This document shows positions 21,250-41,194 of a stretch of DNA of 64,000 nt, piece after piece; within the stretch, counting starts at the first letter, position 1, and each line of letters opens with the position of its first letter. This stretch comes from Pseudocercospora fijiensis CIRAD86 (Eukaryota > Ascomycota > Dothideomycetes > Mycosphaerellales > Mycosphaerellaceae). The stretch covers positions 464,599-528,598 of the forward strand of contig NW_006921544.1 in NCBI RefSeq assembly GCF_000340215.1, given 5' to 3'. A program made the position numbers and the translations under genes. A model generated the notes under the pieces. That model was given only the letters and a program-made list of their open reading frames with translations. It made no database searches and was not told the origin of the DNA.

Positions 21250-24200
21250 AGTTTTGGTATTTTTTAATTATCTACTAACAGTTCTATAGGTTTCCTTTTA
21301 GTTCCTAAGTGTTTTCTAAATGTAGGTATCCTTTCTACTTAATAAGGTATTTCTAACCTTGCTAGTCTAGGATTTTCTCGACTTTAAACTCGTTTTCTTC
21401 CTTAGGTTAGAAGTAAAATGTTTCTTAATACGGTGTTTCGGCGTCTATAGGTTCTAGTATAGAGATATAGAATACTAGGTAGATTTTTGCGTCGTCCGGT
21501 AGTTTAAGTCGGTAATTAACTAGTCCTTTAGGCTCGTTAATCAAAAATGGGCCGACTTTAACGTAGTCTAGTTTCTTAGTCGTTCTCCGGGTTCTTAGAT
21601 TCTTTATTAGGAGGTAGACCTTATCCCCCTTTTTTAGCTAAGGTGCTATTTTTCGTTTAGTATTATACGGTCCCGTAATCTTTTCTTAAGACTCGGCAAT
21701 TGCCTTCTGTAATTGTTTATATACCTGCTTTAAGTCTTCTAAAGCGACTATCGCCTTATCCGTATATAGATACTATAAATACTATTCCCCGAACAGCTAC
21801 GGATATTTCCTAAAATTAGCGAAGAATAGTGTTTCTTTCGTAGTCTTAGATTGTTAATTATTTAGTGTAAGTTGTGCTATAGGCAATAGCGATACCTAAT
21901 CGTTTTGCGCGTAGTTAATATAGTGTCGTAAGTATACCTCTAAGGCCTAATTCTTGATTTCCGTTTAGCCGTCTGTCTATAGATAGTATACCGTCAATAG
22001 CTTATGCTTAATTCTAAGTGTCGCTATAAGCGTCTTCTAGTAGTTTAACGTAAAGAGCTTGTCTCTATCCGTAATATAGGTCTTTAGAAATCTATAGTAT
22101 CGTATAAGTCTATCTAGTACGAGGTATCCGAGTTGCTCTACCGTACTTGCTTCGTTAGTAGGAATGAAGTATGTATATTTCGTAAGCCTATTAACTATAA
22201 CAAGTATTATATCGTAGCTATGTCCTATAACTAGATCCTTAGACCTTAGTAGTTTCGTAATAAAGTCTATTATAACTTCGTCCTACGGTATATCTAGTAG
22301 CGTCCTAAATTGGATATGTCTATACTTAGCGTGTCTATTAGCCTTATTACGCTAACATTGTAGATATTTCTTAATATATTCTAGAACTCGTTGTCGTATA
22401 TATAGGAATCCGAGGCTTCGCTTAACTAATTCTATTGTTTTTAAAACTCTAGGGTGTCTATTTTCTAGTCCGTCGTAGTGTTGTCGTATATACTCTATAA
22501 CTCGTTCCTTAGGTACCTAGTATTTCCTATATTCGATTAGGAACTGTTCTTCTATATCCTAAAGAATTCGTATAATATAGTTGAATTCCTTTATATTAGC
22601 ACTAAGGCTTCCGTCTTAGTTTGCCTTTAATATCTGTTACTGCACTAGTTCGTAACCCTCTATATAGTCGCTACGGCGGCTTAGTGCGTCGGCTCGTCCG
22701 TTCTCGCGTCCTAGGGTATAGCGGATTTCGAACTTGTACTATCCTAGTAGCTCCGACTAGCGGGCCTATCTTCGGGTTAGTACTTTAGTCGTAGTAAAGT
22801 AAGTTAGATTCTTATAATTAGAAAGAATCGTAAGACTTAGTACTCCTTCCGCGTATACTCGCTAGTGTTGCAGTAATATAACTATTGCAACTAGCTGCTT
22901 ATTATAGATATCGTAGTCCTGTTCCGCGGGTAATATCTTTCTCGAGTAATAGGCTACCGGGTGTCGTTTCCCGTTATACTCCTATATAAGATATGCTCCT
23001 ATAGCTCTATCTAACGCGTCTGTCTCTATCTAGACCGCCTTATTCCTATCGAATAATCGTAGCGTTAGTATAGAAGCGCATTGCTCCTTTAGTTACTTAA
23101 ACGCTTTATCTTCCTTCGTGCTCTAGTTCTATTTCTTATCTTTCTTTACAAGCTCCGCAAGGGGTGCCGCCGTCTTAGAATAGCCCTCGATAAATTTCCT
23201 ATTATAGTTAGCTAATCCTAGGAATAATTATACGTCCTTGACGTATATTAGCGTTAGCTATTCCTATATTAACTTAGTTTTTTCTAGATCGATCCTAATT
23301 CCTATAGTACTAATAATAAATCCTAGGAACTTAACTTCCTTCTTATAGAATTCGCATTTCTTAGGTATAGTCTTAAATCCTACTTAAGTGAATCGTTTAA
23401 AGACGTCCTATACTATTCGTATATAGTCCGCGAGAGCTCCCTTAGTATAGACTAAGATGTCGTCTATATATACGATAACGTATATATCTAGGAGGTCTCG
23501 GAGGACTTCGTTTATAAGGTCTTAATATAACGCTAGGGCATTCGTAAGTCCTATAGGTATAACTAAGAATTCGTAAAGCCTATATCTTGTTCAGAATGCT
23601 ATTATCTACTCGTATCTAGCTACTATACGTATTGCGTAAAACGTATCGCGTAGGTCTATTTTCGTATACTAGTCTAATCTAGTTAATCGGCCTTGTATTT
23701 CTTTGATATTCGGTAACGGGTACCGATTCTTAATCGTAATGTCGTTAAGTCGTCTAAAATCGACTACTAGCCGTCCTTCGTCTAATCCGGCTTTCGGAAC
23801 GAACATTACTAGTAGGGCTGCCGAGGATATCGACTTCCGTATCTAGCCTTTTTCTAGTTTCTCTTTTAGCTACTTGTCTAGGGTTTTAAGCTCTTTCTTA
23901 GATATTGCGTATAAGGGTCCCTATAGAGGCTCTTTCCTAGGCTATAAGTGTATCTTATAATCCTATAGTTAGTATTTAGGTAAGGCCGCTTTGCCTCTTT
24001 CCTCTTTAAAGAGTCGCTTCTACTTGCTATACTCTTTAGGAATGTCTAGGTCCGAGATTCTAGTTTTATTCTTCGATAGCGTATAACTTCTATCCTTCCT
24101 ATAATCGTTATTATAACCCTCCTAACCTAACGGTAGTGTCGATCCGGGTTAAATATAGTTTTCCGTAATTCCTATCGACGTAAACGTCTTACGAGTCGCC

Positions 24201-24817
24201 CTACGTTTATGAATCTCATCTGTCTACGAACTCTGCTACTATATAGGTTAAATGCCGATTATATAGTCGCATTCCTTAAATGCAAGTACTCCTCTTCTCT
24301 AATCTATAACTAGGTTATACTTCCTTAACTAAGGTATACCTAGTATAATATTATAACTAGCTATATTAGTAACATCTAAAACAATTTCCTCGTAGTACTA
24401 TTAGATAGCTAGTAGCAACGGTATCGTCTCTCGTTCTATACTAGGTAGCGGTAACCTATCTACTACTATAAGTTTATACGCTCCTTCTCTTCTACTTCGG
24501 ATTGCGATCCCTCGGCTTTTAACGAATAATTCGGAGGCAAAGTTCCCGCTCGCTCCGGAATCTATTAATATACTCGTCGGGTGCCCGCTAACGATAACTT
24601 TTATACGGAAGACTGCTGTTAATGCTTAAGCGCTTTCGGTATTAAGGAACTCTCTTAGAACGCTCTAATCTAGAGAGTTAATCCGTTTCCCGACTAGTTA
24701 TTAGCCTAACGTTGTTCTAACTAGCTACGGATCCGTAGTCCTACCGTTCGTACTTCTTCGGTATATAACTTTTCTTCGAGGGTATCGTTGCGTATATCTC
24801 GTCCTTGCGCTACTATA
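21250..24817 (-). pseudogene. Chromovirus B pol: protease, RT, RNase H, integrase, chromodomain
   Basis: Minus-strand order from 24817: retropepsin with the DSG active site (ILIDSGASGNFASELF, about 24577-24540). RT follows with RLVVDFRRLNDITIKNRYPL and the catalytic box YIDDILVY (about 23472-23450). RNase H reads ETDALDRAIGAYL, then RKILPAEQDYDIYNKQLVA and the ALSRRSDYIEG linker. The integrase includes DFITKLLRS, ITDRDKLF and the GQTE stretch. A chromodomain ends the protein (KVEKILDQQG, KYLIKQKGYLHLENTQE, about 21420-21280), with RIP stops on conserved Trp codons. The gag C-terminus and protease are separated from upstream gag by the hAT insertion at 24826. Otherwise the frame is nearly continuous, with only RIP stops. 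Confidence 0.9.
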
Positions 24818-24825
24818 GCCTTTCG
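24818..24825. repeat. hAT target site duplication, left
   Basis: GCCTTTCG, matched exactly by 33958-33965. Eight base pairs is the hAT superfamily rule. Confidence 0.92.
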
Positions 24826-24845
24826 TAGACCCCGTAGTAGTTCGG
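24826..24845. repeat. hAT terminal inverted repeat, left
   Basis: TAGACCCCGTAGTAGTTCGG, exact complement of the right end. Just inside lie imperfect GGTTTAGTTTGG-type motifs (24845-24895), mirrored at the other end as AAACCAAACC, which may be transposase subterminal binding sites. Confidence 0.93.
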
Positions 24846-25008
24846 GTTAGTTTGGTTTAGTTTACTAAGCCGAAACTCTAGTTTGGTTTAGGTTGGTTTG
24901 CTAAGCAACTATATAAGTAGCTGGTTCGAACTATATAATTTATCGGTTTTTAAGAAGTGTAGGAATGTATACGTAGCTTTAAGCAAGCCCTTTATAAGAC
25001 TTAGTAGT

Positions 25009-25042
25009 ATAGCCGGCAGCGTAGCCGGTAGCGTAGCCGGCA
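25009..25042. repeat. GCCGGC minisatellite
   Basis: Three units of AGCCGGCAGCGT/AGCCGGTAGCGT. It corresponds to 1542-1572 of copy 1. Confidence 0.75.
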
Positions 25043-25269
25043 TTTTTAGTCCTTAGTACTTATAGAATTTTCGAATCCTACTTAGGCTACGTAGTTATAT
25101 AAAGGTACTTATATAACCTTAAATCTATAGACAATTAGCTAAGGGCACTAACTAATCAAAAGCATATACATATATATATAAGGCATTATAGTTCAGTTCG
25201 GAAACTGTACTCCTTAGGTATAAATTTAATCCTTTCGTTTACGGTTTAATTCCCTAACTACTTAGTAGA

Positions 25270-25794
25270 ATATCTTTATCTAGATCTAGGTAGAACTTAT
25301 CGATTTCCCTTAAAGCTCTCCTTAAGAAGTTCTAGCACTTTCCTACTAAACTATACTCTAACATTAAGCACTAGGATAGCTCCTCCTTCGATATCGGTAC
25401 TATATACGAAACAGCTATAAGGCAGCTCTATAGGGCGTTCTACTAGTTACTCGCTATACTGCGGCCGAATGCTAGTTCGTTCCTTAGAACTCTAGGTTAT
25501 TTAGTAGATATTAAGGGTAGGGCAGGCAGTAACTTCGTATTATATAAGGAAGTAGAGGCTGCTATAGAGGAGTCCTTTAACCTATAGAAGATAGTAAAAG
25601 ATATAGAGGTAGCTATAGGTCTAGGTACCTAGTTTAATTTCTAGTAGGTAGAGTATAAGGATATTTAGCGGGAGTATTAGGTAGAGTTGCGAAAGCAGGT
25701 ATATAATATAGTCTAGAGAACAGGGATAATGCCTATAACTATAAGTATTAGGTTCTTTAATCTTCTTCCTTTTTTCCTTATTTTCTTTTTATAA
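25270..25794 (+). pseudogene. hAT-borne ORF starting MSLSRSR, copy 2
   Basis: Same ORF as 853-1317 of copy 1. Here the initiating ATG has become ATA (25270) and the frame runs 174 codons to TAA at 25792. The segment RAGSNFVLYKEVEAAIEESF is shared with copy 1. The last 20 codons are Phe/Leu-rich and encoded by a T-rich tract, so the genuine end may be slightly earlier. Function unknown. It reads outward-to-inward from the element end opposite the transposase terminus. Confidence 0.45.
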
Positions 25795-26525
25795 AAATCT
25801 AAACTAATACAAATTAACTAGAATGTCTATCTTCTTTTAGTTCTTAGTAAGACCTAGTAGCGTAGCCGGCAGCGTAGCCGGTAGCGTAGTCGGCCTTTTT
25901 ACTCCTTAGCACTAACGGGTTTTTCGAAGACTTCTATTCTATACGGCTAATAAAGCATACTATACTATATATATATACTTAGAGAGTATTTAGAGTACGG
26001 TATATAGCGCCGTCTAATAGCGGCTTATTTCGTATATAGAAACGTTTATAGATAATACTAAGAATATCCTGCCTACTGGGATATCCATCCTACCTACTAC
26101 TATCTCGAATATAGACATTCTAGCCTTCAAGAATCTAATCGAGCATTTTAAAATCCTTCTATATAATCGTAATACGCTTCGCGTAGATAGCTATAAGGTT
26201 AACCGCTAAAATAGTATTAGTATAGCTCTAAAAGAGGTAGAAGAGAAATATATATTCGAAGATACGAACTAGGTAGGCTTCTATAGCCTCCTAAAAGGCG
26301 TCTAGTACGGACGCTTAAAAGCGATAGTCCGGCATCTAGTATTAGGCAATTTCGCGAACAAGTCGTCTAAAAGGAGCATAGGGTAGAAGGAGTCTACTAT
26401 ACTTCTAATAATTCCGAATCTTACGAAGGGCTCCGGCTAAAGAGGGATTAGCAAAAAGTAGTAAAGATACCGGCTACGCTACCGGCTACGCTGCCGGCTA
26501 CGCTGCCGACTACGCTACCGGCTAT
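25795..26525. other. Spacer between convergent hAT ORFs
   Basis: It contains two GCCGGC minisatellites (25858-25895 and 26467-26525). Copy 1 lacks the 446 bp corresponding to roughly 25730-26175. No convincing frame. Confidence 0.45.
26467..26525. repeat. GCCGGC minisatellite, longest array
   Basis: Five units of ACCGGCTACGCT/GCCGGCTACGCT. It lies at the 3' end of the convergent basic ORF. Confidence 0.8.
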
Positions 26526-26950
26526 AGAAGAAAAAACTTACTTCCTAGGCGCTATCGACGGCCGCTACGATTATTGCTACTAGTAGTAGAAGCGCTAGTC
26601 GTCATCTTCCGCGGAGCCTTATCCGTAACGGTCTTTCTACTACTAGCGGTAGCGGCAGTAGCCTTCTTACGTTAATGTACTATAGTCTTTCTAGTAGTAC
26701 CGATCTTATTGCGACCTATAGTAGTAGTAGGTCCTTTCTTACGAGACGTAGTAACTTAGTCGAGTAAACTCGCTATTACGAAAGTCGTCGAATTAATAAA
26801 AAAGTGCGTTACGAAGGTATATAAAGGCGCGCGCAGAGCGAGGACATTGCGGTAGCAGCAGATATAGAGCGTAGAGGTATAAGTATCGATACGAAGGTAA
26901 CGGAAGGTTAAATAAAGCGAGAGAGATAGTATTACGGTATCGCTAGGCAA
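26526..26950 (-). pseudogene. hAT-borne basic ORF, copy 2
   Basis: The frame 26756-26950 is open and continues, through one RIP stop, into VTTSRKKGPTTTIGRNK, TTRKTIVHQRKKATAATASS and TSASTTSSNNRSGRRQR, ending near 26526. The C-terminal half is Lys/Arg/Thr/Ser-rich and matches 323-560 of copy 1. The N-terminal half is hydrophobic and less certain, and its start would be a TTG. The basic tail could bind nucleic acid. No family recognised. Confidence 0.4.
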
Positions 26951-27865
26951 TAGAGTAAGCTTCGCGTAAGCCTACCTTACAGTAACGTTAGAGCAAACAA
27001 AGATAGTGGGTACGGCTAGGGTAGGTAGGTACGGCAACGTTGAAAATATAGCCGGCACCTATAGCCGGTATAATAGTATAGGCTATACTAAACAAAGTAG
27101 CTATTTTATAGGAAGAAGCTTACTTCCGTCTCTATATACCGCCTACGAGTGCCGGCTCTACCTCTGAATTTAACTCCGCCCTATCTCTAAGGCTAAGGTA
27201 CCGAGTAGAAACCTAGTATCTTATATTCACTCGATTGTTACGGAGCGCTTATAGGTAAGGTATTGAAAAGGTATATAAAAAAAGTACGAGAATAGTATCC
27301 TAAGATATAGGTCGTAAGTAAATAAGAGTAGGACGCCTAGTTATTTGTATAGTACGTTACTCTAAACGACTAAGAGCCTATATTATCTCGTGCTTCGCGC
27401 GTATACTTAACCTTACCTCGCCGCGGAGGTAGAGTGTTAAGATTGCCTATAAGGTACGACCGTCTATTATAGTCGTTAGTAGGACCTACATTTGCTATAC
27501 TTGTTAAGGTAGCTTATACTTCGCGGTTATACTTAACCTTACCTAGCCGCGGAGATAGAGTATTAAGATTGCCTATAAGGTACGACCGTCTATAAGGTAC
27601 GACCGTCTATTATAGTCGTTAGTAGGACCTACATTTGCTATACTTATCGAGGTAGCTTATTAGAAGGAAGCCGTAACCCTTTATACCTTACTTTTTAACG
27701 CTCCGCGAAACCCGGGTAAATATAAGGCGCTAGGTTTTTACTTCGTACCTTAGATTTAGGTACGGCGCGGAGATAGAATAAGTATAGCCGGCACCTATAG
27801 CTAGTAAAAAGATGCGAAAATAGGCCTCTACCTAGGTTAATCTAACGACTAAATACAAATTCTAA
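26951..27865. other. hAT spacer with tandem repeats
   Basis: No gene seen. It holds TAGCCGGCACCTATAGCCGG at 27054-27074, a 127-bp tandem duplication (27393-27660) and a further GCCGGC unit at 27785. Confidence 0.5.
27393..27660. repeat. Tandem duplication, ~127-bp unit
   Basis: Two units start at 27393 and 27519 (CTTCGCG...TATACTTAACC). The second has an extra internal repeat of ATAAGGTACGACCGTCT. The copies differ by few changes. Confidence 0.85.
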
Positions 27866-28498
27866 TTAATACGCTATAAACCGACGCCGAATTTTAGCTA
27901 GAAGCTATATATCTTTATATTAAAGAGTAACCCGCTTCGTATAGATAGTAAGGAGGTTTAAAAGCTTAAACTCGGTTACGAGAAATGCCTCCGTAGCTTC
28001 CTAAAGAGTACTAATCGCCTTAGCCGTAAATCGTATACTAGACTTAAAATCTAATATAATTTCTCGAACGAGTCGCTAGAAGGGAGTCTTAGGGATTAAA
28101 AGCTCGGTCCCTCTTTTTTCTTAGAATAGCCGGATCTCGCGAAGGGCAATAGTACCTAGTTTAAAGCGCCGCTTCTTTATCGTCGAGACCTGCCTTTTAC
28201 CCTTTTTTCTAATAGAAGAATAACTTTTCTTCGCGATAGCCTTCGTCCGCCTACTCTTTTTAGCTAGCTTAGCCTACTTGCTTTTCGGTACTGTTTTCCG
28301 AGGAACCCCCTTCCTTTATATATACTACGGATAGTCCTCTTCTTCCGATATCTCGTTCTCGCTATAGTCTTCCTATACTTAGCTTGCTTTACCCTTGCCC
28401 TTATCTAAGTTCTAAAGGTATTCTTATACGCGTTCGGGCGACGAAGGTATATCGGTAAGACCTAGAAAATTAATAAGCCTATAATCGTAAAGAATCAT
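27866..28498 (-). pseudogene. Divergent histone H3 / CENP-A-like gene carried by the hAT element
   Basis: The frame starts with an intact ATG at 28496-28498 and gives 210 codons. Residues 1-60 are acidic (SENEISEEED). Residues 61-112 are a basic tail with PRKTVPKSKQAKLAKK. Residues 112-210 are a histone H3 fold: KLGTIALREIRLF (alpha-N), ELLIPKTPFQRLVREIILDF (alpha-1), SSIRFTAKAISTLQEATEAF (alpha-2), then TKRVTLQYKDIQLLAKIRR (alpha-3). All twelve in-frame stops read as former Gln. Four fall on glutamines invariant in H3 (RYQ, PFQR, LQEA, DIQL), which excludes chance. The tail is much longer than the ~37 residues of canonical H3, and AFLV plus RVTL recall CENP-A. A role at chromatin or centromeres is inference. 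No introns seen. Confidence 0.9.
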
Positions 28499-28834
28499 TT
28501 ATACTTCTTACCTCCTAAATTAAATAGTCTTCTATTAAACCGTCTTAGTAGGTCCTCGTTAGATTCGTACTTAGGATAGTCGCTAAAGGAAGGGGAGGGG
28601 GCCGACTTAGTAAGGCCCGAAGAGCCGAATCCTTAAGATATATTTATCTTTAAGAATATAGGGAAAGGGAAGAAGGAGAGGAAGAGCGAGAAGAGAATTA
28701 GAAATAGTTAGTAGGTAAGCGGGGTAGGTTGCTATAGCAACTAGTCTGTTTAGGAATTCGAAACATATTCGGGATATATACCGGCTATATTACCTTCTAC
28801 GTAAGCGCTTCGCCTCCTTAAAGCTACTCTAAGC
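28499..28834. other. Spacer between H3-like gene and transposase
   Basis: No frame seen. It contains an A/G-rich run at 28655-28705 and a GCCGGC-like unit (ACCGGCTAT) at 28780. It would hold the promoter of the H3-like gene. Confidence 0.4.
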
Positions 28835-31160
28835 CTATATACGCTTCCGCTTCTCGACCCGGTATCGCCTTCTACCTCCGCCCTCCTCCTCTTCGTTATC
28901 GCTAATTAGGGTTTCGCTTAGACTAAATTTCGTATTCTCTTCGTACTCCTAGATTTCTTCGATCTTAAGGTTTTCTAATTCCTCGATTAAGTCCTTTAGT
29001 ATAATCTTAAGTATCCTACCTTAGCGACTCTAGTAGAGGAGATAGTATCGGAATACTATAATAGATTCGAAGGTAGTAGGCGAGTATATTCGATTAAAGC
29101 GGCCCTAGTAACGAGCGATACTAAAAGACCTCTTATAGCCTATACCTACGCTCGGTATAGCGAGGAGGTCCCGAGCGACCGACGCTATCGTTAGAAACTT
29201 AGGCTCTAACCGCTACTATATCGCGAGAATATCGTCTCCGAATTCGTCTAGAAGACCGGTAAGATCTAGAGATTATTAGCCCTCTTTCCGAGCCTATAGG
29301 TTTAGTACTTACTCGCGCGCCGATAGAGTTCGAACTCTTCTTCGTTTACTTTAGTAGTTGCTTCCTCTTCTACCTCTACTTCCTACCTACGAAATAGGTA
29401 TAATATCGGAGCCTTCTTAGGCTTCTTTTTCTTTATACGAGCTACATTTAGGCTAGTTTCTTTCCGACGCTTATAGAATATCTTTTCTAGAATATTCTAG
29501 TAATGCTTAGGCTATTTATCGTCCCTATTCTATTCCGGCCTCTACTAGTATATATCCTTTTCTACCGGGTTAAGTAAGTACGTAACCCTATAGATATCCC
29601 CGAACGACTAAAAGGTAGCACTGTAATATTTATATAACTTAGTATAGGAGGTGTCTATAGCTTTCGTTATAGCTACTTTCTAGGGAACGCTCTTCCTAGC
29701 TAGCTTAGCTACGGTTTCCTCGAGCTCGTTAAAGAGCTAGTTATAGTACGCGAAGATAAGGTAGATCGTCGGTCCTCGGGTTCTTCTAATCGTAGTAGTA
29801 ACCTTCGCGTAATGCTTGCTAATATCTACGAGATACTCTGCTTAGCGCTATTCGGCGGCGGTAAGCCCGAGCTACTTAATACCCTCGGAATTCTAATAGA
29901 TCTCGAGAGCGGTACGTAAAGTATATTCCCTCCTAACTATATAGAAAGTCGAATCGAACCGGGTCTTTACGTCTTAGGTAAAACAGAGTAGGCGCTAAGG
30001 AGGCCGCTTTTACTATCGCTTATTCTATACGATATTCTAGGTATCGGTTTTAGGGCGCTTAATAAGGTTCTTTTAAATAGCCTCGAATCGGTTATATCTC
30101 TATAAGCTCGAGTTCGTATATATTGCGAGACGACGAAGCTAGAGAAAAAGAGTTAGAACTATACTAGGCTACCGGCTATAGGTACCGGCTACGGACAAAA
30201 GTTATACCTTATATAAAACGAGAGCGAGGCTTTCTACCTTATCCCGTCTTATTACTATAACGAGTTTCTCGACTTTCGACTTTACTTTATCCTTATCTAG
30301 GATCTTCTATTAGTCGTTATTTAATAGTACAATTTTAAGCGTCTTAAAGAGGGCTCGGATCGCGATTTGGACTGTATAAGCGAGGTAGGGAAACTTCTAT
30401 AGGGATATAACTAGTAAGTACGTCGGCTCCGATTCCTCCGATTTAATAGGGCTAGGGCTATTACTAGGGTCCTCTTTATCTTTATTATCGTACGTATCCG
30501 GAATCGTAGCGAGCTTAATATTCGGAAGATTAAGCTAGATAATAGACGTTGTAATCTCCTCTATATACTCGACGCTATCGATACAATTAGCAATTTCAAA
30601 GATATATATAAGTAAATTGTATATATAACGCCTTATACAATGTTCGATTATTACTAGCGTTGTCTATAGTAATCGAGATTAGTTTCGTTGTTACGCTAAC
30701 TCTATCTATTGCCGTATAGATAAGCTTCGCTATATCCTTACTAGTATAGGAACCTAGAATTTTAGGGAATCCGATTATAAGTTCCTAGAGTTTCTAATCC
30801 GAATTAATAAAGTATAGTATAATCGAGAGGAAGGAGGCTCTTATAGTCCGGCTTAACTAGCTATCGATAGTAATAGCTACTCGGCGAGTATTATAGAGGA
30901 TCTCCCGAATATCGTCTAACGTAGCCTCTTTGTTTTTTTCGAATATAGTACGCGAGGTTGTCGCGCCGAGAAATAGGGGGGTAGTTTATAAGATATAGGT
31001 ATATCTTCTATATAGACTCCCTTTCGTAGAAGTCTTCCGGAAGGCCGTTTATAGCTAGCATTTCGTTTGCTAGTTACTTAAAGTCTTCGACGGAGAAATC
31101 GGTAGCCTTTAGTCCTTAAGCTTCCTTTAGCGTAGCCTATAATAATTAGCTAGATCTATA
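28835..31160 (-). pseudogene. hAT transposase
   Basis: Minus-strand order: a helical N-terminal part (LANEMLAINGLPEDFYERES), then the catalytic core start RRVAITIDSWLSRTIRASFL (stop at the Trp), IIGFPKILGSYTSKDIAKLI and ITIDNASNNRTLYKA. The central DVKTR[W]DSTFYIVRR block and helical insertion (YNQLFNELEETVAKLARK; YKYYSATFQSFGDIYRV) follow. Last is the C-terminal dimerisation domain SVARDLLAIPSVGIG, RSFSIARYQGRFNRIYSP, TFESIIVFRYYL. This matches the hAT plan. One 69-nt intron (30139-30207) is supported. At least two single-base frameshifts (near 30960 and 29335) accompany the RIP stops. No BED finger was identified, so the N-terminus may be incomplete. Confidence 0.92.
30139..30207 (-). other. 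Spliceosomal intron in the transposase, containing a GCCGGC unit
   Basis: Minus strand begins GTATAACTTTT and ends TTCTAACTCTTTTTCTCTAG, with a branch-point-like CTAAC and pyrimidine tract. Removing it joins ALVLYK to LRRLAIY in one frame. GCCGGC-type units lie inside it (30167-30195). Confidence 0.7.
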
Positions 31161-31224
31161 CGGTTAATTGTAGTAGCCGGTAGCTATAGCCGGCATTTTA
31201 GAAGACGTACCTCTTTCTAGAACG
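31161..31224. repeat. GCCGGC minisatellite upstream of the transposase
   Basis: GTAGCCGGTAGCTATAGCCGG at 31170-31190 separates the transposase from the next minus-strand ORF. Confidence 0.7.
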
Positions 31225-31870
31225 CTATATCTATATTAACCCTTATATCTCCTTAAGATTCCCGATACCGTTTAGAATAGAGATAGTTAGTAGGCGATGA
31301 ATTCCTATTCCCTAGTTTCGGGTATTTTAAGATTAAACCGTAGAAGTTATAGATAATAACTAGTTAACCTTTTAGTCGAGAACTCGTATAACGGTATAAT
31401 ACCCCCTCCGTAAAGAACTTCTAGAATATATCCGTTCGCTCCTTACTACCCTATCGTATCGAGTACTTCCGTAGTTTACACTCCTTTAAACGTAAGTATA
31501 TAGGGAACTAGATCTTATAGACCTATTAATTAAACTGCTCGGTATACTCGGGTTTCTAAAGATACGCCTAGCTAGCCTTTTCGAAGATATCCGGGTTAAT
31601 ACTCGATATTCTTATATCTCCGAATAACCTTCTACTTAGACTCCGTAAAGGTAAGGACTAGGTAGTAGTACCCTATAATAAATTCCTACTACTAGGATTC
31701 GGAGAGGATAAATCTAGCCCTAATCGTCGTCTAGTACTTAATAGGCTCGAAGGCGAGTATATACCCTCCTCTCGACGTTGTCGCAATCTCGCTCGTATAC
31801 TAGACTATTTCGACTATCGTCTCGTTATTACCCTTCCTAGTATAGCGCCTAGTATATATACAATGTCGGT
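31225..31870 (-). pseudogene. hAT-borne ORF remnant, unknown
   Basis: Minus-strand reading gives LAFEPIKYQTTIRARFILSE, TFTESKQKVIRRYKNIEY and, after a phase change, YTEQFNQQVYKIQFPIYLRL, SSRLKGQLVIIYNFYGLILK. Stops are of RIP type. The order of charged and aromatic residues is protein-like but no family was recognised. It may be an N-terminal exon block of the transposase or an independent cargo gene. Confidence 0.4.
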
Positions 31871-32094
31871 CGGTATGTTTTAAAAGTTTGTATAGTAAGG
31901 TAAGGAGTAGTAGATATATACTAGTAGCTATAGGGAAACACCCTTTCTTTTATAGTATCGTATCGTTAGGAAAAGCTAGGTAGTAGATAGCTAGCTACCT
32001 TCTTTTTATTTCCTAGCTACCCTAGATATCCTAATTACCTTAATTTTTTTCCTAGCTATCCTAGCTATCCTAACTATCTAAATTTTGCCTTCTA
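31871..32094. other. Low-complexity spacer
   Basis: Holds repeated TCCTAGCTACCCTAGATATCC-like units (32018-32085) and no frame. Confidence 0.5.
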
Positions 32095-33070
32095 TATAGC
32101 GGCTCTCTCCTACTAACGGAACCGAGCTACTATACCTAACGAATCTAAGCTCGTTTTTAGTCTTAATCTATCCTCTTTCGGTATAAGACACTCGATAAGC
32201 AAATACTCGGGCCGAGTCTAGCTACGAAACCTAATACTAACTAATAGCTCTATTAACTAATCCTAATCCTCGAACTCCTTCCGCTTCTTAGTAAAGACCT
32301 TAAAGAGCGCCCGAGCTTCGTCCGGTGCCTACGGAGTAGTCGAGATAAAGCCGTATTACTGAAATAGGTAATCCTTCGGAGGCTTATATAGAGATTTAGA
32401 GAATTCTAACGCTAACCTATCCTACTAGCAGCCTAGATTCCGGATACAAGCCCTCTCTACCTTAGTAAAGATTTTATATAGTAGTAGCACTCTACCCTCG
32501 AGAAACGCTTTCTATTTAAGTATTAGTATCTACGGCTACGAACGCCGGCTATATATACCGAGTATAGAATAATTACCTATACCCCTTCCTCGTTAAGTAA
32601 CACTTCCGCCGTCCCTAGATACCTAGCCCCGATTGCATTAATCGTAAGCTACTTTGCCTTTATAGACGTAAAGGCATCGCTCTAGTACTAATAAAGAAAT
32701 TTCTACTCTATATCGAGGATATAAAGACGACTAGTCTCGATTCCGATCCTTGCTAGCTTTTCGTAGTAGCTTTAACGATGATTTTCTAGATTAATAGGAC
32801 TTATACCTTAGCCCTTTACTAGTACCTCGTCTTTTTAACTATACTCGATCTACTCCTAGCGCGTATCGTCTATAGCGTTAGGCCCTAAGACTATACCTAT
32901 TACTAGATCGACGTATAGTATCTCCTCGCTTTTTTTAGTCCCTTTATTCGTAGTATTATACTCTTTCGCGGCATTCTAACCTCTAGTATTATTGTTCTCG
33001 GCTATCTTAATATCTCCGTTACTATCGGTCGTATCGATAGAGGTAGCGGCTATAGGTCTAAATGCTATTA
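32095..33070 (-). pseudogene. hAT-borne ORF remnant, unknown
   Basis: Minus strand from about 33070 reads NAAKEYNTTNKGTKKSEEIL, YYEKLARIGIETSRLYILDI and AIGARYLGTAEVLLNEEG. In a second phase it then reads SLYKPPKDYLFQQYGFIST, APDEARALFKVFTKKRKEFE and RPEYLLIECLIPKEDRLRL. It is soluble, charged and of moderate size (about 320 codons). The function is not recognised. It is separated from its neighbours by GCCGGC units at 33093-33130. Confidence 0.45.
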
Positions 33071-33092
33071 GTTAACGTCTAAAAGAAAAAAA

Positions 33093-33130
33093 ATGCCGGC
33101 TATAGCTACCGGCTATAGCTGCCGGCTACA
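33093..33130. repeat. GCCGGC minisatellite
   Basis: Three units GCCGGCTATAGCTACCGGCT and GCCGGCTACAGC between two minus-strand ORFs. Confidence 0.8.
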
Positions 33131-33136
33131 GCTAAC

Positions 33137-33480
33137 TTACGCTACTAGAACTTTACGCTCGAAAACTAGACGCAATTCCTTCCTCCTCTAAGCCTTCTCT
33201 TAGGTTGTCTTCTTATTCTAACCTTTACTTTTTTCTATAGGCGCTAGCTATCGATAGAATGCCTTATTCCGCGCCTTTCTTCTCTTATCCTTAGCTCTTT
33301 TATCCTTATCTATCTTCTCCTTTCTCTCGCGGTCTCGTACGGAATTCTTCTTCGTAGAGTACTTCTCTTTAGTCTTACGCTTTTTAGTTAGATGCTCTAG
33401 CAAAATAAACTCGCGGTCTTTAGTTCTATCTTCTATTTAGCGCGCGGCGCGCTTCTCTCTTGCTATTATAAGGAAAAGGG
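33137..33480 (-). pseudogene. hAT-borne Lys/Arg-rich ORF remnant
   Basis: The minus-strand frame reads DREFILLEHLTKKRKTKEKY, SVRDRERKEKIDKDKRAKDK, RRKARNKAFYRQLAPIEKSK and ends LVFERKVLVA with TAA at 33137-33139. The very high Lys/Arg/Glu content suggests a single charged helix or nucleic-acid-binding tail. No family recognised. Confidence 0.4.
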
Positions 33481-33613
33481 GCGGGGGCGTAGCGTATAGT
33501 AGTTATTATCGGTATAGGTATAGAGGAAGAAGTTGAAAGATATAAGAATATCGCGAAGCCCTAATTGTTGCCGCCTACGTAACGTTATATAGGTAAGCTT
33601 TCGCAACTACGGC

Positions 33614-33823
33614 AACTACGCCCTAGTAACGGCAATAGAGTGTAGTAAATATAACCTAGTAACTATTATAGCCGGCAATCGTAGCCGGTAGTCGAATAAG
33701 AGTGTCCTTATAGTAAAACTACGCCCTAGTAACGGTAAAAGAGCGTAGTAAATGTAATATAGTTACTAATATAGCCGGCAATCGTAGCCGGCAGTCGAAT
33801 AAGAGTATCCTTATAGTAAAACT
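33614..33823. repeat. Tandem duplication, 103-bp unit, with GCCGGC cores
   Basis: Two units start AACTACGCCCTAGTAACGG at 33614 and 33717. Each contains TATAGCCGGCAATCGTAGCC and ends AGT.TCCTTATAGTAA. It lies just inside the right terminus. Confidence 0.9.
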
Positions 33824-33937
33824 AATATAGTCTCTAGTTTAAACTAGGAATCTATATAGTTCGAAAAAACCAAACCGGAACTAGGGAGCTAGTTCGCCGC
33901 TAAGAAACCAAACTATATACGTTTAATAGTTCGGAAA

Positions 33938-33957
33938 CCGAACTACTACGGGGTCTA
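33938..33957. repeat. hAT terminal inverted repeat, right
   Basis: CCGAACTACTACGGGGTCTA, exact complement of 24826-24845. Confidence 0.93.
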
Positions 33958-33965
33958 GCCTTTCG
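33958..33965. repeat. hAT target site duplication, right
   Basis: GCCTTTCG, identical to 24818-24825. Confidence 0.92.
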
Positions 33966-35690
33966 GTATTGCTAATTTAGTCGCTAGACCGCCTAACGTA
34001 TGTCTTAAGTAATATTCGTCCTCTCGTCGGATAGGACGTATCCGTAGGGCGTAATCATACTTCCTATCGGTACTCGCTCCGTAATAAAGTTGTAGTACGT
34101 ATAGTCTATAGGTATCCGGGGGTAATTCTAGAATTTTACTTGCAAGCTTATCTAGAAATAATTAAATTAGATAGGATTAACCCTTCGTTGTCCGTTAACC
34201 TTTAGAAACATTTCCTCGTACTTGCGTACTAGATATAAGGCGATTGTTCGCGCTACTATAGGTATATCTATCGTAAACGTAAGGATCGTATCGTCGTTAA
34301 TCCCGAATTCGTCTTTACTTTCTTTATTCGTAGTTTCTTCCTCGGTATCTAGACTTTCCTCTAAATCTTCTTGCTATTCCTCCTCTTACTAAGGGGGCTC
34401 CGGTACTTCTAGGATTGCTCCTAACTCCTCCCTAGGAGGGAATAAAGCTTCCGGATCTCGGTTTTCTTCGTCGTCGGTATCTAAGCAAGATTTATTAATC
34501 GTTTCTTCTTCTACCTAGGATTTCGTATCTTCTTATACGAGTCGCCTATTCTAAGGGAAAAATCCTGCATCTATCTTAGCAGAATAATAAATTTAGCATC
34601 GGTCGTCGTAATAGAATCTCTAGTAAAGGGTTCTATATACGGGTTCTTGTCGTCGTGCTATTATATAGATTTGTTGTAGCTCTTTCTTTACGACCTCTGC
34701 GTAGGTCCTCGGCGTACTATTAATAGAGTATAGCCCTTCTACTATTTAGTAGCCTCCTCTACCCGAGTCCCTTCGTTATATTATATTAAACTGTTCGCGT
34801 CGCACTATGTTCTTACCGCGATAGTTCTATACTATATAGCCTTCCTTGCTATACGTATAGCAAGTTAATCTTCCTACTTTCTTAGGCGAACTCTTGCCCT
34901 TTCTTCCTTTAAATGCTCGACCCTTCTAGGTAGCGTCTAGCTCTATTAGTTGCGCGCTATAGTAGTTGTTCCTCTTTAGTTTGTCGTAGGTACTATAGTT
35001 TCGTCTATTATCGTATCTAGGAGTATAACTAGCTTTTCTAGAAGTCTTAGAATTGTAGCGTTGTTCTAAAGCTCGTTAATAGAGCCTATCGTCGAGATCG
35101 ATCGTAACCTTAACTAATGTTCCTATATTATCTATTTTTCTACCGTCGCGTATAAGCTTATCCTTAACGCTATCCTTAAGACCTCGCCGATATATTGTTA
35201 TAAGAGCTTCGTCGTCCTAATCCGTAAGTTAGGCGTATTCCTAGAATTTAGCGGCGTAATCGGTATATAACCCCTTCTAAGTTAAGTATTAGATAACCCT
35301 AACCGCGGTAGCAACCTCGTTAGAAGATCTAAAGACCTTCTTTATCGTACGCTTAAGATGTTCGTAGCTTACGAAGATTCTATTCGAATTGTCGGTTCCG
35401 TTGCTATCTATATAGGTCCTAAGAAATAGTTTAACCTAATACTAAGCCCTACCTCGTATAAACGTTATTGCGAAGACTAGCTTTAAGTTGTCTTAAACCT
35501 AGTTAAATATAAAATATATATCTATCTAGTTAACCTAGGTATCGAACTTGTCCCGGTCGCTATAATAAAAGTCTAGCTTTCCGATCTTAAGGGAATCGTT
35601 TCCGGTATAGGTTCCTAGTATACCGCTAATACTAGAGGTAGTACGTCGAGTATTGCCTATCTCGCTAGGGGCGGGAGTTCCCCTTCCGAC
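33966..35690 (-). pseudogene. Chromovirus B gag
   Basis: The minus-strand frame includes KIGKLDFYYSDRDKFDT, VSYEHLKRTIKKVFRSSNEV and EEALITIYRRGLKDSVKDKL-like capsid sequence. A CX2CX4HX4C zinc knuckle follows (CYTYSKEGYIVQNYRGKN at about 34865-34815; three of the four ligands now Tyr through RIP of TGC/CAC). An acidic C-terminal part ends the segment. Zinc-knuckle Gag packages RNA in Ty3/Gypsy elements. The frame continues, across the hAT insertion, into the protease at 24817. Start codon not fixed. Confidence 0.8.
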
Positions 35691-35725
35691 TTGTAATAAG
35701 GCACTTATCCTAAGGGCGTTTAAAG

Positions 35726-36071
35726 TATTACGGTTACTCGCGACAGATCGTTAGGTAACTTCTTATTACGTACAAGCCGAGGCTTCTTTAGAGAGGCTAA
35801 TACAAGCGGGAGGCTAAGATAGAATAATTAGTATAAAGGTAATTCCAATTAGTAAGTAGGTAATATAAGTTAAACGCCTCGAGCTATAAGGGTATCTTAG
35901 CGTTCCTAAATACAAAGGAGACATCTTGTCTATAGTCGTAAGCGACGTAAGTAACACTATCGCTCTCGACCGCTCCTATCGCTCCTAGTAAAGTAGAGCG
36001 ACAGCTTAGCTCGCTAGTCTTAGCGTCGCTCTAAGATTATATAAGGACTCTAACTAATTAGATCCGTAACA
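35726..36071 (-). repeat. 5' LTR of chromovirus B
   Basis: Direct repeat of 20054-20380, same ends. It has an extra stretch (CTCTCGACCGCTCCTATCG) near 35960. TSD TATAT follows at 36072-36076. Confidence 0.9.
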
Positions 36072-36742: not shown

Positions 36743-39700
36743 AGTAGCTTGCTACTAATCTAAGGACCGCGCCTACGCGCGCGAAATTATAAGTAGTCCG
36801 CTAAGACCGGAATAATTAGCTAGGAATTTTTATAGACCTAATTGTATTATTAAAGTTAAAGTAGAATTTAACTTACCCCGAATTTAAGCGTAGAACGTAA
36901 ATCGAAAGCGCTTAACGAACCCCGGATATAAGCGTAATACGCTAATAAAAATTTAGTAAGAGCTTAACGTATACTAAAGACCTAGATATAGCTATATCCT
37001 ACTAAATGCGAAGCCTATCGACTAGTATAAAGGTCCCCGTAGCGAAAACATTAGTAAGACTACTAATAGTACTATTAATTTTAATAAAGCTATTAGTAGA
37101 GCCACTAGTAACTTTAGACTATTAGACTATTAGGAGGGCTACTAGTAGGCAACTACTAGTAGGACTAGGTATTAAGATAACTATTAACAAACCTATTAAT
37201 TAAACTATTAGGTAAACTACTAGACAGACTATTAGATAAACTATTAGCTAAACTATTAGTAACCTGATAATAGAACTAATAATAAAACTAATAATAAAAC
37301 TAATAATAAAACTAATAATAAAACTAATAATAAAACTAATAATAAAACTAATAATAAAACTAATAATAAAACTAATAATAAAATTAATAATAAAACTAAT
37401 AACTCAAATAGCACTAATAGTAAAACTATTAGTAAAACTACTAATAGGACTATTAATATAACTACTAATAAAACTGTTAATAAAACTACTAGTAAAACTA
37501 CTAGTAAAACTACTAGTAAAACTACTAGTAAAACTACTAAGACTACGAGCTAACCTACGAATAGGACTACTAATTAAAGTACTAAGAATACTAACTAAAC
37601 TAGAAACAAAACTATTAACAAAACTATTAGCAAAACCACTAAGAAAACTATTAATAAAACTACTAATAAAACTATTAAAGAAACTACTAATAAAATACTA
37701 ATTAAAATTTTTGTTAAACTGAAACTAGTAATCGAACTGCTAATTAAACTATTCATTAAATAGTTAACCAAGCTATTTATATAATTACTAATATAACGAC
37801 TAATTCAACTACTAGTTAAGCTACTAGTCAAACTACTAATGAAACTACTAACGAAATTTTAAATCAAACCGTTACGAGCAACTGAAATGCTAATCGAACT
37901 GCTAGCTAAACTACTAATCGAACTGCTAATCGATCTACTAATCGACCTACTAATCGACCTACTACTCGACCTACTAATCGACCTACTAATCGACCTATCT
38001 CTATTTAGAGGTTAGTAACTTAGTACTATATACTTTGAATTATATAATTTATTAGGGGACTAGCTACTAATAAAATACTAGTTAAAACTTCCGTTAGACT
38101 AAAACTAGTAATCGAACTACTAACTAAACTATTAATTAAATAGTTAATTAGACTACTAATTATATTGCTAATTAAACTACTAATTAAACTACTAGTGAAA
38201 CTACTAATTAAACTACTAATTAAACTACTAATTAAACTACTAATTAAACTACTAATTAAACTACTACTTTAAATTTGAATTAAACTACTACTAGTAATTA
38301 AACTACTAACTAAACTACTAATAAAGCTACTAATCAAACTGCTAATCGAACTACTAATCGAACTATTAATTAAACTATTAATCGACCTATCTCTATTTAG
38401 AAGCTAGTATATTAGTATTATATAATTTAAACTATATAATTTATTAGGGGACTAGCTACTACTAAAATACTAATTGAAATTTCCGTTAAACTTAAACTAC
38501 TAATCGAACTACTTATTAAGCTATTAATTAAACTACTAATTATACTATTAATCAAACGGTTAGATAAACTATTAATTAGACTATTAATAAAACTACTAAT
38601 AACGTTTTGAATTAAACTATTACTAGTAATCGAACTTCTATTTAAACTACTAATTAAACTATTAATCAAACTATTAATAAAACTATTAATCAAACTATTA
38701 ATCAAACTATTAATCAAACTATTAATCAAACTATTAATTAAACTATTAATCAAACTATTAATTAAACTATTAATCAAACTATCAATCAAACTATTAATCA
38801 AACTATTAATTAAACTATTAATCAAACTATCAATTGGACTATTAATCAAACTATTAATCAAACTATTAATCAAACTATTAATCAAACTATTAATCAAACT
38901 ATTAATCAAACTATTAATCAAACTATTAATCAAACTATTAATCAAACTATTAATCAAACTATTAATCAAACTATTTACTACACGATTAATCAAACTATTA
39001 ATTAAACTATTAATCAAAGTATTAATTAAACTATTAATCGAACTATTAGTCGAACCGTTAATTAACCTCTACTAATCGAACTATCTCTATTAAGAAGTTA
39101 GTAATTTAGTATTCTATACTTTAAACTATATAATTTATCGGGGGACGAGTAGTAGAAATAACTAGTATAATAGCTAGATAGTATAGCTTAAAGCTATTAA
39201 TCTCTAAGAATTATACTACTAGGCTTACTAGCTAGAGGATAGCTACTAGTAATTAGGGGGTTATATATAATATATCTAGGCCTCTACTAAGATAGTATAT
39301 CTATTCTTTTAGTATATATTGTATATATAGCCTAAATAATTAAGTTTTCTTTATATATTTTAAGCTAAGTTTAATAACTTTTACTACTAGTAAATTTACT
39401 ACTAAAGTCTAAATCGCTATTTTAGTATATAGCTAAAGTCCTATTCTCTCTTACTATAGCAATTAGCTAAGTAGTACTTAGTATTTGCTATAGATATATT
39501 TAATTTTCTAACTAAATATTCAAAGCCTACTAACTAAGAGTCTAAGGGAATTAATAGCGCGCGTCTAGACTAGTAGCGAACTACTACTTAGATACTAGTA
39601 CTTATACTAAGCCCTACTAAACTATATACTATAGCTAGAACAAACTACTATATAACTTAAAAAAGCATAACTATAACTAAGAATTATAAGATTAGTAAAT

Positions 39701-39972
39701 TTTCCTTTATAAACGAGGGCATAGATATATATAAAAACTAAAATTATAATATTCTCTAAAACTAGTATCGTATTCCTAGAACCTTATAAATAGCTACATT
39801 ATATATAATATAAAGATACCTAGGCCTATAGTTATAGAGTCTAAGAGCCTTTAGCTATCGAAGTTTGCTAGCCTCGGTAGTCGAGATATATATACGATTA
39901 GTAATTAAAACAAATACATTGCAAGCTGCTAGTCTTAGAACGCGATAGTAGTCTATAACACTTCCTAGTATT
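36743..39972. repeat. Insertion carrying a 12-bp-period satellite with higher-order blocks
   Basis: Absent from giant copy B. Flanks (36743-37050 and 39150-39972) are A/T-rich and unique here. The core (about 37080-39070) is built of 12-bp units such as AATAATAAAACT, ACTACTAGTAAA, AAACTACTAATT and ATTAATCAAACT. A longer block recurs three times (starting near 37685, 38060 and 38460). Each copy opens with TAAAATACTAATTAAAATTT-like sequence and closes with CCTATCTCTATTTAGAGGTT (near 37995, 38388, 39072). The apparent 196-residue frame at 38427-39017 is only the repeat read through. No TIR or LTR was found at its edges. Confidence 0.85.
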
Positions 39973-41194
39973 CTTAAGAACCTTTAGAAATATTATAAGG
40001 ATCCTAACTTTTAGGTAAAGAAGTTCCTTAGTAGGAATAGTATATAGCTTAGCAATACTAAGGCCCTTGCCTATACTCTATAATACTAAAAACTTGTCGC
40101 TCGTTAGCCTAACGATAACGCTCTTACCTCGAGGATTCGGGAGCTTAAAAAGGATAAAACTAATAAGATTCCCTACTAGATTATAGAAATAGTAGGTAGG
40201 GTAGCGACCTCGGCTATTAGAAGTACTAGGCCTAGGTAGGTAGAAAATTACTCTATTCCTTTTCTTACTTCTACTAGAGAATTCTTTACCGGCCTTAAGG
40301 TAGAGGAAAGCTAGAAGGAGTATAAGGCCGTCTCACGAGGAGGTCGTCCGGANNNNNNNNNNNNNNNNNNNNNNNNNNNNNNNNNNNNNNNNNNNNNNNN
40401 NNNNNNNNNNNNNNNNNNNNNNNNNNNNNNNNNNNNNNNNNNNNNNNNNNNNAAAAAGGGAGGACCCCAAGAAAAGCGAGACGGCAGGCTGTAATTTATG
40501 TGAGCCTTAAGTCGAGGCTTAGGCGTAGATTAACTAGTCCGTAGTATAGGTTATTTCTTCTAGGGTAGACGCCCTTCCTTACGAAATGCTCTATATCGAC
40601 CCTAGCTAGATACGCCTTTTATTAGTCGACGATAAATTCGCCCTTATTCCTAGCCCGTATATTACTATTACTATTAATATATACCTTAAGATCCGCGCTC
40701 TTATTAACAAAGGGTACGAGGGGAATATTCTAAATACGAAGTTCCTATAGCGTACTAGCCTTACTCTTTTAAAAGGCCTTATTCTAAATATACGAAAGTC
40801 TAGAGGGAGAGCTAAATTTATTAGTATTAGTACCTCCGTTCCTATCTCTACCTTTAATATCGAGTACAAACCCGATTTCTTTATTATACCCTCTAGCGAC
40901 GACGACCTTCCTATTATCCTTAGTCGCCTATATGCTCGTAAGAACCGCCTTATTGCCCGAAATATAAAGAACGGCTCCTAGGAAGGGACGATTTCTATAC
41001 GCAGGGGTCGCTCTACTATATTTACTACCCTTGCCGGCTCCGTGAATTGTATCCTAGTTAAGGATCTTCTTAGTCGCAATAAGACCTAGTAGTTAAAAAA
41101 CTAGGAAGCGGACGAGAAACTAGCGTCGAGTCCGCCCTAGTTTCGAAACCGCTAGATAAAGGTATTATATATACTATCGCGGCTTACTATTTAA
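39973..41194 (+). pseudogene. Giant copy A ORF1, protease-like part
   Basis: Continues ORF1 after the satellite, collinear with 53525-54587 of copy B. It includes the protease-like stretch EMLYIDPSQIRLLSVDDKFA, ITINIYLKIRALINKGYEG and ISTSVPISTFNIEYKPDF. The Asp expected in the active-site triad reads Asn in both copies (INKG). Ends at TAATAA (41192). An assembly gap lies within. Confidence 0.7.
40353..40452. other. Assembly gap (100 N)
   Basis: Exactly 100 N in ORF1 of giant copy A. The 54 nt after it (40453-40506) are not found in copy B and look un-RIPed. Confidence 0.95.

What the first reader, a model, noticed from the sequence alone, without database searches (positions are those of the whole stretch)
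27866..28498. A divergent, long-tailed histone H3 (CENP-A-like) gene is cargo of a hAT transposon
The sequence shows a 210-codon frame with an intact ATG and all H3 helices. Its twelve stops all read as RIP-altered Gln codons, four of them at glutamines invariant in H3. It lies strictly inside the TIRs, beside the transposase. Transposons rarely carry a nucleosome component. An H3 variant with a ~110-residue acidic/basic tail could mark element chromatin, target insertion or compete with host CENP-A (inference). I recall, without being able to check, a report of transposon-duplicated histone H3 in Pyrenophora; the family may be related.
Basis: partly seen in the sequence, partly recalled or inferred. 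Interest (0 to 1): 0.92.

Follow-up and report, generated by a model that had tools for sequence, protein, structure and literature searches.

The report
Dead transposon carrying two histone genes
A dead jumping gene in a fungal genome carries two old, changed histone H3 genes; that such elements carry H3 was published in 2019, but one of the two genes appears to keep introns and both may once have worked for the element, which differs from the published account.

Summary
The H3-like frame is real: 27869-28498, minus strand, 210 codons, 12 stops. It lies in a complete 9,132-bp element with exact 20-bp inverted repeats and an exact 8-bp target duplication. The genome fits Pseudocercospora fijiensis, where hAT elements carrying RIP-killed H3 copies were described by Dhillon et al. 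2019 (PMC6710886), so the core finding is already known. H3A is not CENP-A-like: loop 1 has H3 length, and its fold is closer to host H3 (55-56%) than to host CenH3 (50-52%), although an AU test does not exclude a CenH3 grouping (p 0.146). New against the published account: H3B holds two intron-like stretches, one a codon away from host H3 intron 2 and one, of 48 nt, matching the published '16-residue insertion'; H3B is then no retrocopy. Transversion counts, which RIP cannot fake, show selection on the transposase and partial, uneven signals for the H3A fold and H3B. A transition-blind tree groups H3A with H3B at moderate support, lost when third positions are added. Best reading: two old, once-functional resident H3 genes. 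Function is inferred only.

The parts
24826..33957 (-). Complete hAT-type element, 9,132 bp; 20-bp TIRs at 24826-24845 and 33938-33957; TSD GCCTTTCG at 24818-24825 and 33958-33965
27869..28498 (-). H3A: 210 codons, 114-residue non-canonical tail plus H3 fold, 12 in-frame stops; TAA at 27866-27868
26542..26776 (-). H3B exon 1 (tail; start codon altered, start placed by similarity among copies)
   Evidence: inference for the start
26437..26541 (-). H3B intron 1, 105 nt here, GTAAGT...GCTAAT...TTTAG, holding 12-nt minisatellite units
26254..26436 (-). H3B exon 2 (start of fold)
26206..26253 (-). H3B intron 2, 48 nt; matches the published 16-residue insertion
   Evidence: PMC6710886
26123..26205 (-). 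H3B exon 3 (end of fold), TAG at 26120-26122
30975..31094 (-). Transposase block 1
30599..30979 (-). Transposase block 2 (DUF659 at E 0.14, below cut-off)
30238..30576 (-). Transposase block 3
29305..30069 (-). Transposase block 4
28832..29254 (-). Transposase block 5, hAT dimerisation region (Dimer_Tnp_hAT E 0.019, 15.2 bits, cut-off 21.4)

Best explanation
A RIP-inactivated member of a large hAT family of (by all matches) Pseudocercospora fijiensis that carries two histone H3 genes. H3A has a 114-residue non-canonical tail and no intron seen; H3B has a tail of about 77 residues with H3-like GKAPRK-type motifs and two intron-like stretches. Likely history: an H3 gene entered an ancestral element as genomic DNA with an intron, long ago; it duplicated inside the element; both copies were kept as working element genes while the transposase was active; RIP then killed the copies. 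Likeliest working mode: the proteins paired with host H4 and gave element DNA nucleosomes with altered tails (no exact ARKS motif around K9/K27), weakening silencing or helping transposition. Shown: anatomy, intron-like stretches, stops, conservation across copies, transversion bias. Inferred: splicing itself, capture route, single duplication, function.
For: Both H3s in 21 of 21 elements read, which were chosen by H3A. Intron 1: GTAAGT in 21 of 21, lengths 66-116 nt, 11 of 21 not multiples of 3; removal gives GTVAL in 18 of 21; intron 2: 48 nt in 21 of 21. Spliced H3B of copy L043 matches H3 chains at 3e-40 in one stretch over both joints. Transposase, transversions at codon positions 1+2 v 3: p 4e-5, 3e-4, 0.005. 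H3A fold positions 1+2 v transposase position 3: p 0.0009 (II-III), 0.022 (I-II); H3B positions 1+2 v 3: p 0.011 (I-II). H3A-H3B K12/K4 0.35-0.48, Fisher p 0.017-0.076. All 4 H3A indels between the complete elements compared are multiples of 3, elsewhere 15 of 40 and 21 of 49. Transition-blind tree, positions 1+2: A+B 91.6/93.
Against: H3A as a whole shows no significant deficit (14/418 v 5/209; 15/406 v 11/203; 20/404 v 15/202). Fold tests fail in I-III (H3A p 0.44; H3B p 0.33), H3B II-III p 0.054. Fourfold sites give no support between subfamilies for A (ratios 8.18, 4.25, 0.76) or B I-III (1.19), and host-B_II is 0.78, p 0.41. A+B falls to 24/61 with third positions. AU rejects none of A+CenH3, A+host H3, B+host H3 (p 0.146, 0.13, 0.15). 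No transcript was examined. RKS persists in 5 of 21 H3B tails.
Confidence: 0.5

Rival explanations
1. Passive passenger (published reading): a host H3 transcript or retrocopy was captured by a hAT, amplified by transposition and pseudogenised by RIP, without doing anything for the element.
For: Published for this species from 784 copies (PMC6710886). No intron seen in H3A. All scored copies but host H3 and CenH3 carry stops: 148 of 150 scored, 772 candidates. H3A as a whole shows no significant transversion deficit between subfamilies.
Against: Intron-like stretches in H3B in 21 of 21 copies. Divergence from host H3 is large (fourfold transversions 0.36-0.37 for A) while the fold frame is kept; partial selection signals.
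Confidence: 0.35
2. H3A and H3B entered the element separately, from different sources, rather than by one capture and duplication.
For: B has intron-like stretches where none is seen in A. The A-B spacer is highly diverged between subfamilies (transversions 19-35% against II, 6-23% III-I, at about 27,000-27,700), so the two halves may have different histories. All-position transition-blind tree does not support A+B (24/61).
Against: A+B at 91.6/93 on positions 1+2 and the same split at 90/93 in the protein tree, where RIP may mislead.
Confidence: 0.3
3. H3A is a transposon-borne CENP-A (CenH3) relative that competes with host CenH3.
For: AU test does not reject A+CenH3 (p 0.146). Long divergent tails are common in CenH3s (recalled).
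Against: H3-length loop 1, identity 50-52% to host CenH3 against 55-56% to host H3; CenH3s one clade at 99/94 without A; all 60 listed PDB matches are H3, not CenH3.
Confidence: 0.05

Closest known systems
H3-carrying hAT family of Pseudocercospora fijiensis and five relatives (Dhillon et al. 2019, PMC6710886)
   Different: Read there as a captured transcript or retrocopy with no intron and a 16-residue insertion; here the second copy has two intron-like stretches. Subfamilies, transversion tests and a hAT dimerisation region (weak) were not found in the parts read
H3L of the Pyrenophora tritici-repentis hAT (Manning et al. 2013, PMC3538342)
   Same: hAT with H3-like gene carrying tail insertions, belonging to neither H3 nor CenH3
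   Different: 5.6-kb and 2.3-kb elements, nearly identical unmutated copies, one H3 and a central ORF; reported as an independent event with no hAT sequence similarity (PMC6710886). Sequences could not be compared here
Host histone H3 (C6, L001)
   Same: Histone fold, loop-1 length, GTVALR motif, an intron one codon from H3B intron 1
   Different: 54-66% fold identity; canonical tail with ARKS twice; intact; no second H3B-type intron

Membership tests
Histone H3 family | H3-type histone fold by profile and by solved-structure sequences | tested here: met
   H3A Pfam 3.1e-22, PDB about 1e-26; H3B window copy 2.9e-12, L043 spliced 1.3e-28 and 3e-40
CenH3 / CENP-A | Longer loop 1 and grouping with CenH3s | tested here: not met
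   Loop 1 of H3 length, lower identity to host CenH3; CenH3 clade 99/94 without A; AU does not reject A+CenH3, p 0.146
hAT transposons | Short TIRs and 8-bp target duplication | tested here: met
   Window copy exact; of 21 elements both ends were matched in 6: 4 exact TSD, 1 with 7 of 8, 1 (L046, poor left end) none
hAT transposons | hAT transposase domains | tested here: inconclusive
   Dimer_Tnp_hAT E 0.019 and DUF659 E 0.14, both below cut-off; 0.05 for the dimer region and no DUF659 in L043; DUF659 reported in PMC6710886
Retrocopy (processed gene) | No introns | tested here: not met
   H3B: two intron-like stretches in 21 of 21 copies, no RNA evidence. H3A: none seen, so open for H3A
H3-carrying hAT family of P. 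fijiensis | About 9.5-kb element, two H3-like copies, RIP, in this genome | tested here: met
   against PMC6710886; organism inferred, genome unnamed
Pyrenophora H3L | Sequence homology of H3 and element | not testable with these tools

The most novel reading that the evidence does not exclude
An old hAT lineage encodes two histone H3 variants as resident, selected genes: transposon-encoded nucleosome parts whose tails lack the ARKS context of K9/K27 and made element chromatin harder to silence. The Pyrenophora H3L element would then be another case of one recurrent strategy rather than an accident.
Probability: 0.3. Interest if true: 0.82.

Novelty: already known. Interest (0 to 1): 0.42.

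Why it matters
That hAT elements carry H3 in this fungus is in print. The correction would matter: if one copy has introns and both were under selection, the histone was not accidental retro-captured ballast but a working gene of the transposon. Whether some eukaryotic transposons bring their own histones to manage silencing then becomes testable in species with unmutated copies, such as P. tritici-repentis.

Tried and rejected
CENP-A reading: rejected on loop 1, identity and tree position, with the AU caveat. A His-to-Tyr change at the H3 four-helix-bundle site (site recalled) seen in A and B was dropped as a shared trait, because it is itself a RIP-type change. Protein trees of RIP-damaged rows may mislead, so a transition-blind tree was made. 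Whether every element copy has H3A: the 21 elements were chosen by H3A, so only H3B in 21 of 21 is informative. Of the first ten of 149 transposase places listed, eight have an H3A place listed or 23 at the expected distance downstream (matched by eye); two are not listed, which the scoring caps leave open. Rfam: 0 matches in the window. Dropped before counts: L048 H3B (frame broken) from fold comparisons and trees; host H3 exon 1 from codon comparisons; in the protein trees 10 of 21 A rows and 10 of 20 usable B rows were used. Pattern searches for the introns missed intron 1 in 4 of 21 and intron 2 in 3 of 21, and intron 2 in all 17 where it was tried; alignment columns replaced them. L042 intron 1 reads 102 nt because of an 11-nt duplication at its end and 91 nt; counting 91 would make 12 of 21, not 11, no multiple of 3. 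The p-values use rounded means typed; tests are small, overlapping and uncorrected. No structure was predicted.

Full report
What is there. The minus strand at 28498-27869 reads as 210 codons with an ATG and 12 in-frame stops, 7 TAG and 5 TAA. Masked with X, it matches the Pfam Histone model at E 3.1e-22 and H3.3/H3 chains of the PDB at about 1e-26 over residues 77-204. The element is depleted in CpA and TpG, as RIP leaves it. The frame lies in a complete element at 24826-33957: 9,132 bp, exact 20-bp TIRs, 8-bp duplication GCCTTTCG.

Where it comes from. The window is G000:C13:464599-528598 of a 73.94-Mb genome in 30 contigs. Contig 1 is 11.88 Mb. Of 150 scored histone places (772 candidates) two are free of stops: an H3 gene on contig 6 and a CenH3 gene on contig 5. 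P. fijiensis has a 74-Mb assembly with a largest scaffold of 11.8 Mb (PMC4981457, passages seen) and its original H3 on scaffold 6 (PMC6710886).

What was already known. Dhillon et al. 2019 (PMC6710886; abstract, Results, first part of the Discussion and Methods read) describe 784 H3-like copies in hAT elements of about 9.5 kb in P. fijiensis, two per full-length element, all but the original killed by RIP, and the same event in five related species. They conclude that a transcript or retrocopy was captured, since no intron was seen, and put a 16-residue difference between the two copies down to a mutation. Manning et al. 2013 (PMC3538342; passages and the first part of section 20 read) report H3L in a hAT of P. 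tritici-repentis. Searches for further work (listings only, with passages of PMC4994206 and PMC8616336) showed no other paper on it; only open-licence PMC papers are held.

The second H3. The same element holds H3B at about 26123-26776, minus strand. H3A and H3B are found in 21 of 21 elements read (window plus 20 fetched, chosen by H3A). H3B is interrupted by two stretches that look like spliceosomal introns. Stretch 1 begins GTAAGT in 21 of 21 copies and has a branch-like CTAAT (CTAGT in L045) shortly before a TTAG end (in L042 an 11-nt duplication follows it). It is 66-116 nt long owing to 12-nt minisatellite units, and in 11 of 21 copies the length is no multiple of 3. Taking it out gives GTVAL, the H3 motif, in 18 of 21; the window copy reads GTGAL. 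It lies one codon downstream of host H3 intron 2: the host gene splits after the first base of Gly, H3B after the first base of Thr. Stretch 2 is 48 nt in 21 of 21; one copy (L043) keeps GTATGT and the others differ from it by RIP-type changes. Without it the fold reads FESVNL against host FEDTNL with no gap. Spliced H3B of L043 matches H3 chains at 3e-40 in one unbroken stretch over both joints. This 48-nt stretch matches the published 16-residue insertion. If spliced, H3B is no retrocopy. No transcript was examined.

Not CENP-A. Loop 1 of H3A has the length of host H3 and is four residues shorter than in host CenH3. Fold identity, leaving out X, is 55-56% to H3 and 50-52% to CenH3 for H3A, and 54-66% to H3 and 49-56% to CenH3 for H3B. 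In the protein tree A (100/99), B (98/96) and CenH3 (99/94) are each one clade, and H3 with CenH3 stands apart from A and B at 90/93. RIP distorts such rows, so a transition-blind (RY) tree was made: A+B against H3+CenH3 has 91.6/93 on codon positions 1+2 but 24/61 with all positions. AU tests reject none of A+CenH3 (0.146), A+host H3 (0.13) and B+host H3 (0.15). The history is leaning, not settled.

Was it a working gene? Transversions alone were counted, since RIP makes transitions. The transposase is a positive control: positions 1+2 against 3 give 47/1348 v 52/674 (III-II, p 4e-5), 44/1342 v 46/670 (I-II, p 3e-4) and 15/1346 v 19/672 (III-I, p 0.005). The H3A fold at positions 1+2 changes less than transposase position 3 in II-III (p 0.0009) and I-II (p 0.022), not in I-III (p 0.44); it changes less than its own tail in I-II (p 0.005), with 0.056 in II-III and 0.088 in I-III. 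H3B, positions 1+2 v 3: I-II p 0.011, II-III p 0.054, I-III p 0.33. H3A against H3B and against host H3 gives K12/K4 of 0.32-0.48, Fisher p 0.009-0.076. Against this: H3A as a whole shows no significant deficit between subfamilies; fourfold sites, with very few changes, give ratios of 8.18, 4.25 and 0.76 for A between subfamilies and 1.19 for B I-III; host against B_II gives 0.78, p 0.41. The four H3A indels between the complete elements compared are all multiples of 3; elsewhere in the element 15 of 40 and 21 of 49 are. The tests are small, overlapping and uncorrected.

Likely mechanism. Both H3s keep the H3 fold, so pairing with host H4 is the natural expectation (established for H3 in general; inferred here). 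Their tails differ: the exact ARKS motif around K9 and K27 is in 0 of 21 A and 0 of 21 B tails, while host H3 has it twice; RKS persists in 5 of 21 B tails, AKKS is in 20 of 21 A tails and GKAPRK in 13 of 21 B tails. A chromatin-altering, anti-silencing role is the boldest reading that fits, and it is inference.

Verdict. Real and complete, but the phenomenon is published for what appears to be this very genome. The intron-bearing second H3 and the RIP-proof signals are not in the parts of the papers read or in the searches named above, and they argue against the passive retrocopy model.

Noticed in passing
22700-24825 and 33958-36000: Both flanks of the element, minus strand, read like one broken Ty3/gypsy-type retroelement (pol motif left, gag zinc-knuckle-like motif right), so the hAT sits inside it; motifs are recalled, no family search was run.
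   Followed up: partly
G000:C13:389002-712628 and C6:339541: The window's subfamily (7 places at 90-100% identity) has 6 of 7 places on contig 13 within about 324 kb, and the two complete copies have different TSDs: a local burst rather than segmental copies.
   Followed up: partly
27000-27700: The spacer between H3A and H3B is far more diverged between subfamilies than its surroundings (transversions 6-35% per 250-bp bin) and holds tandem copies of about 80 bp in the window.
   Followed up: no
37001-40000: Very AT-rich stretch (GC 0.20-0.27) with strong GC skew and the only ORF of 150 aa or more in the window (38427-39017, minus).
   Followed up: no
G000:C1:8896685-8897057, C2:581713-582085 and others: Five TIR pairs in the listed part of the 345+337 TIR matches lie only about 373-383 bp apart: probably short non-autonomous relatives.
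   Followed up: no
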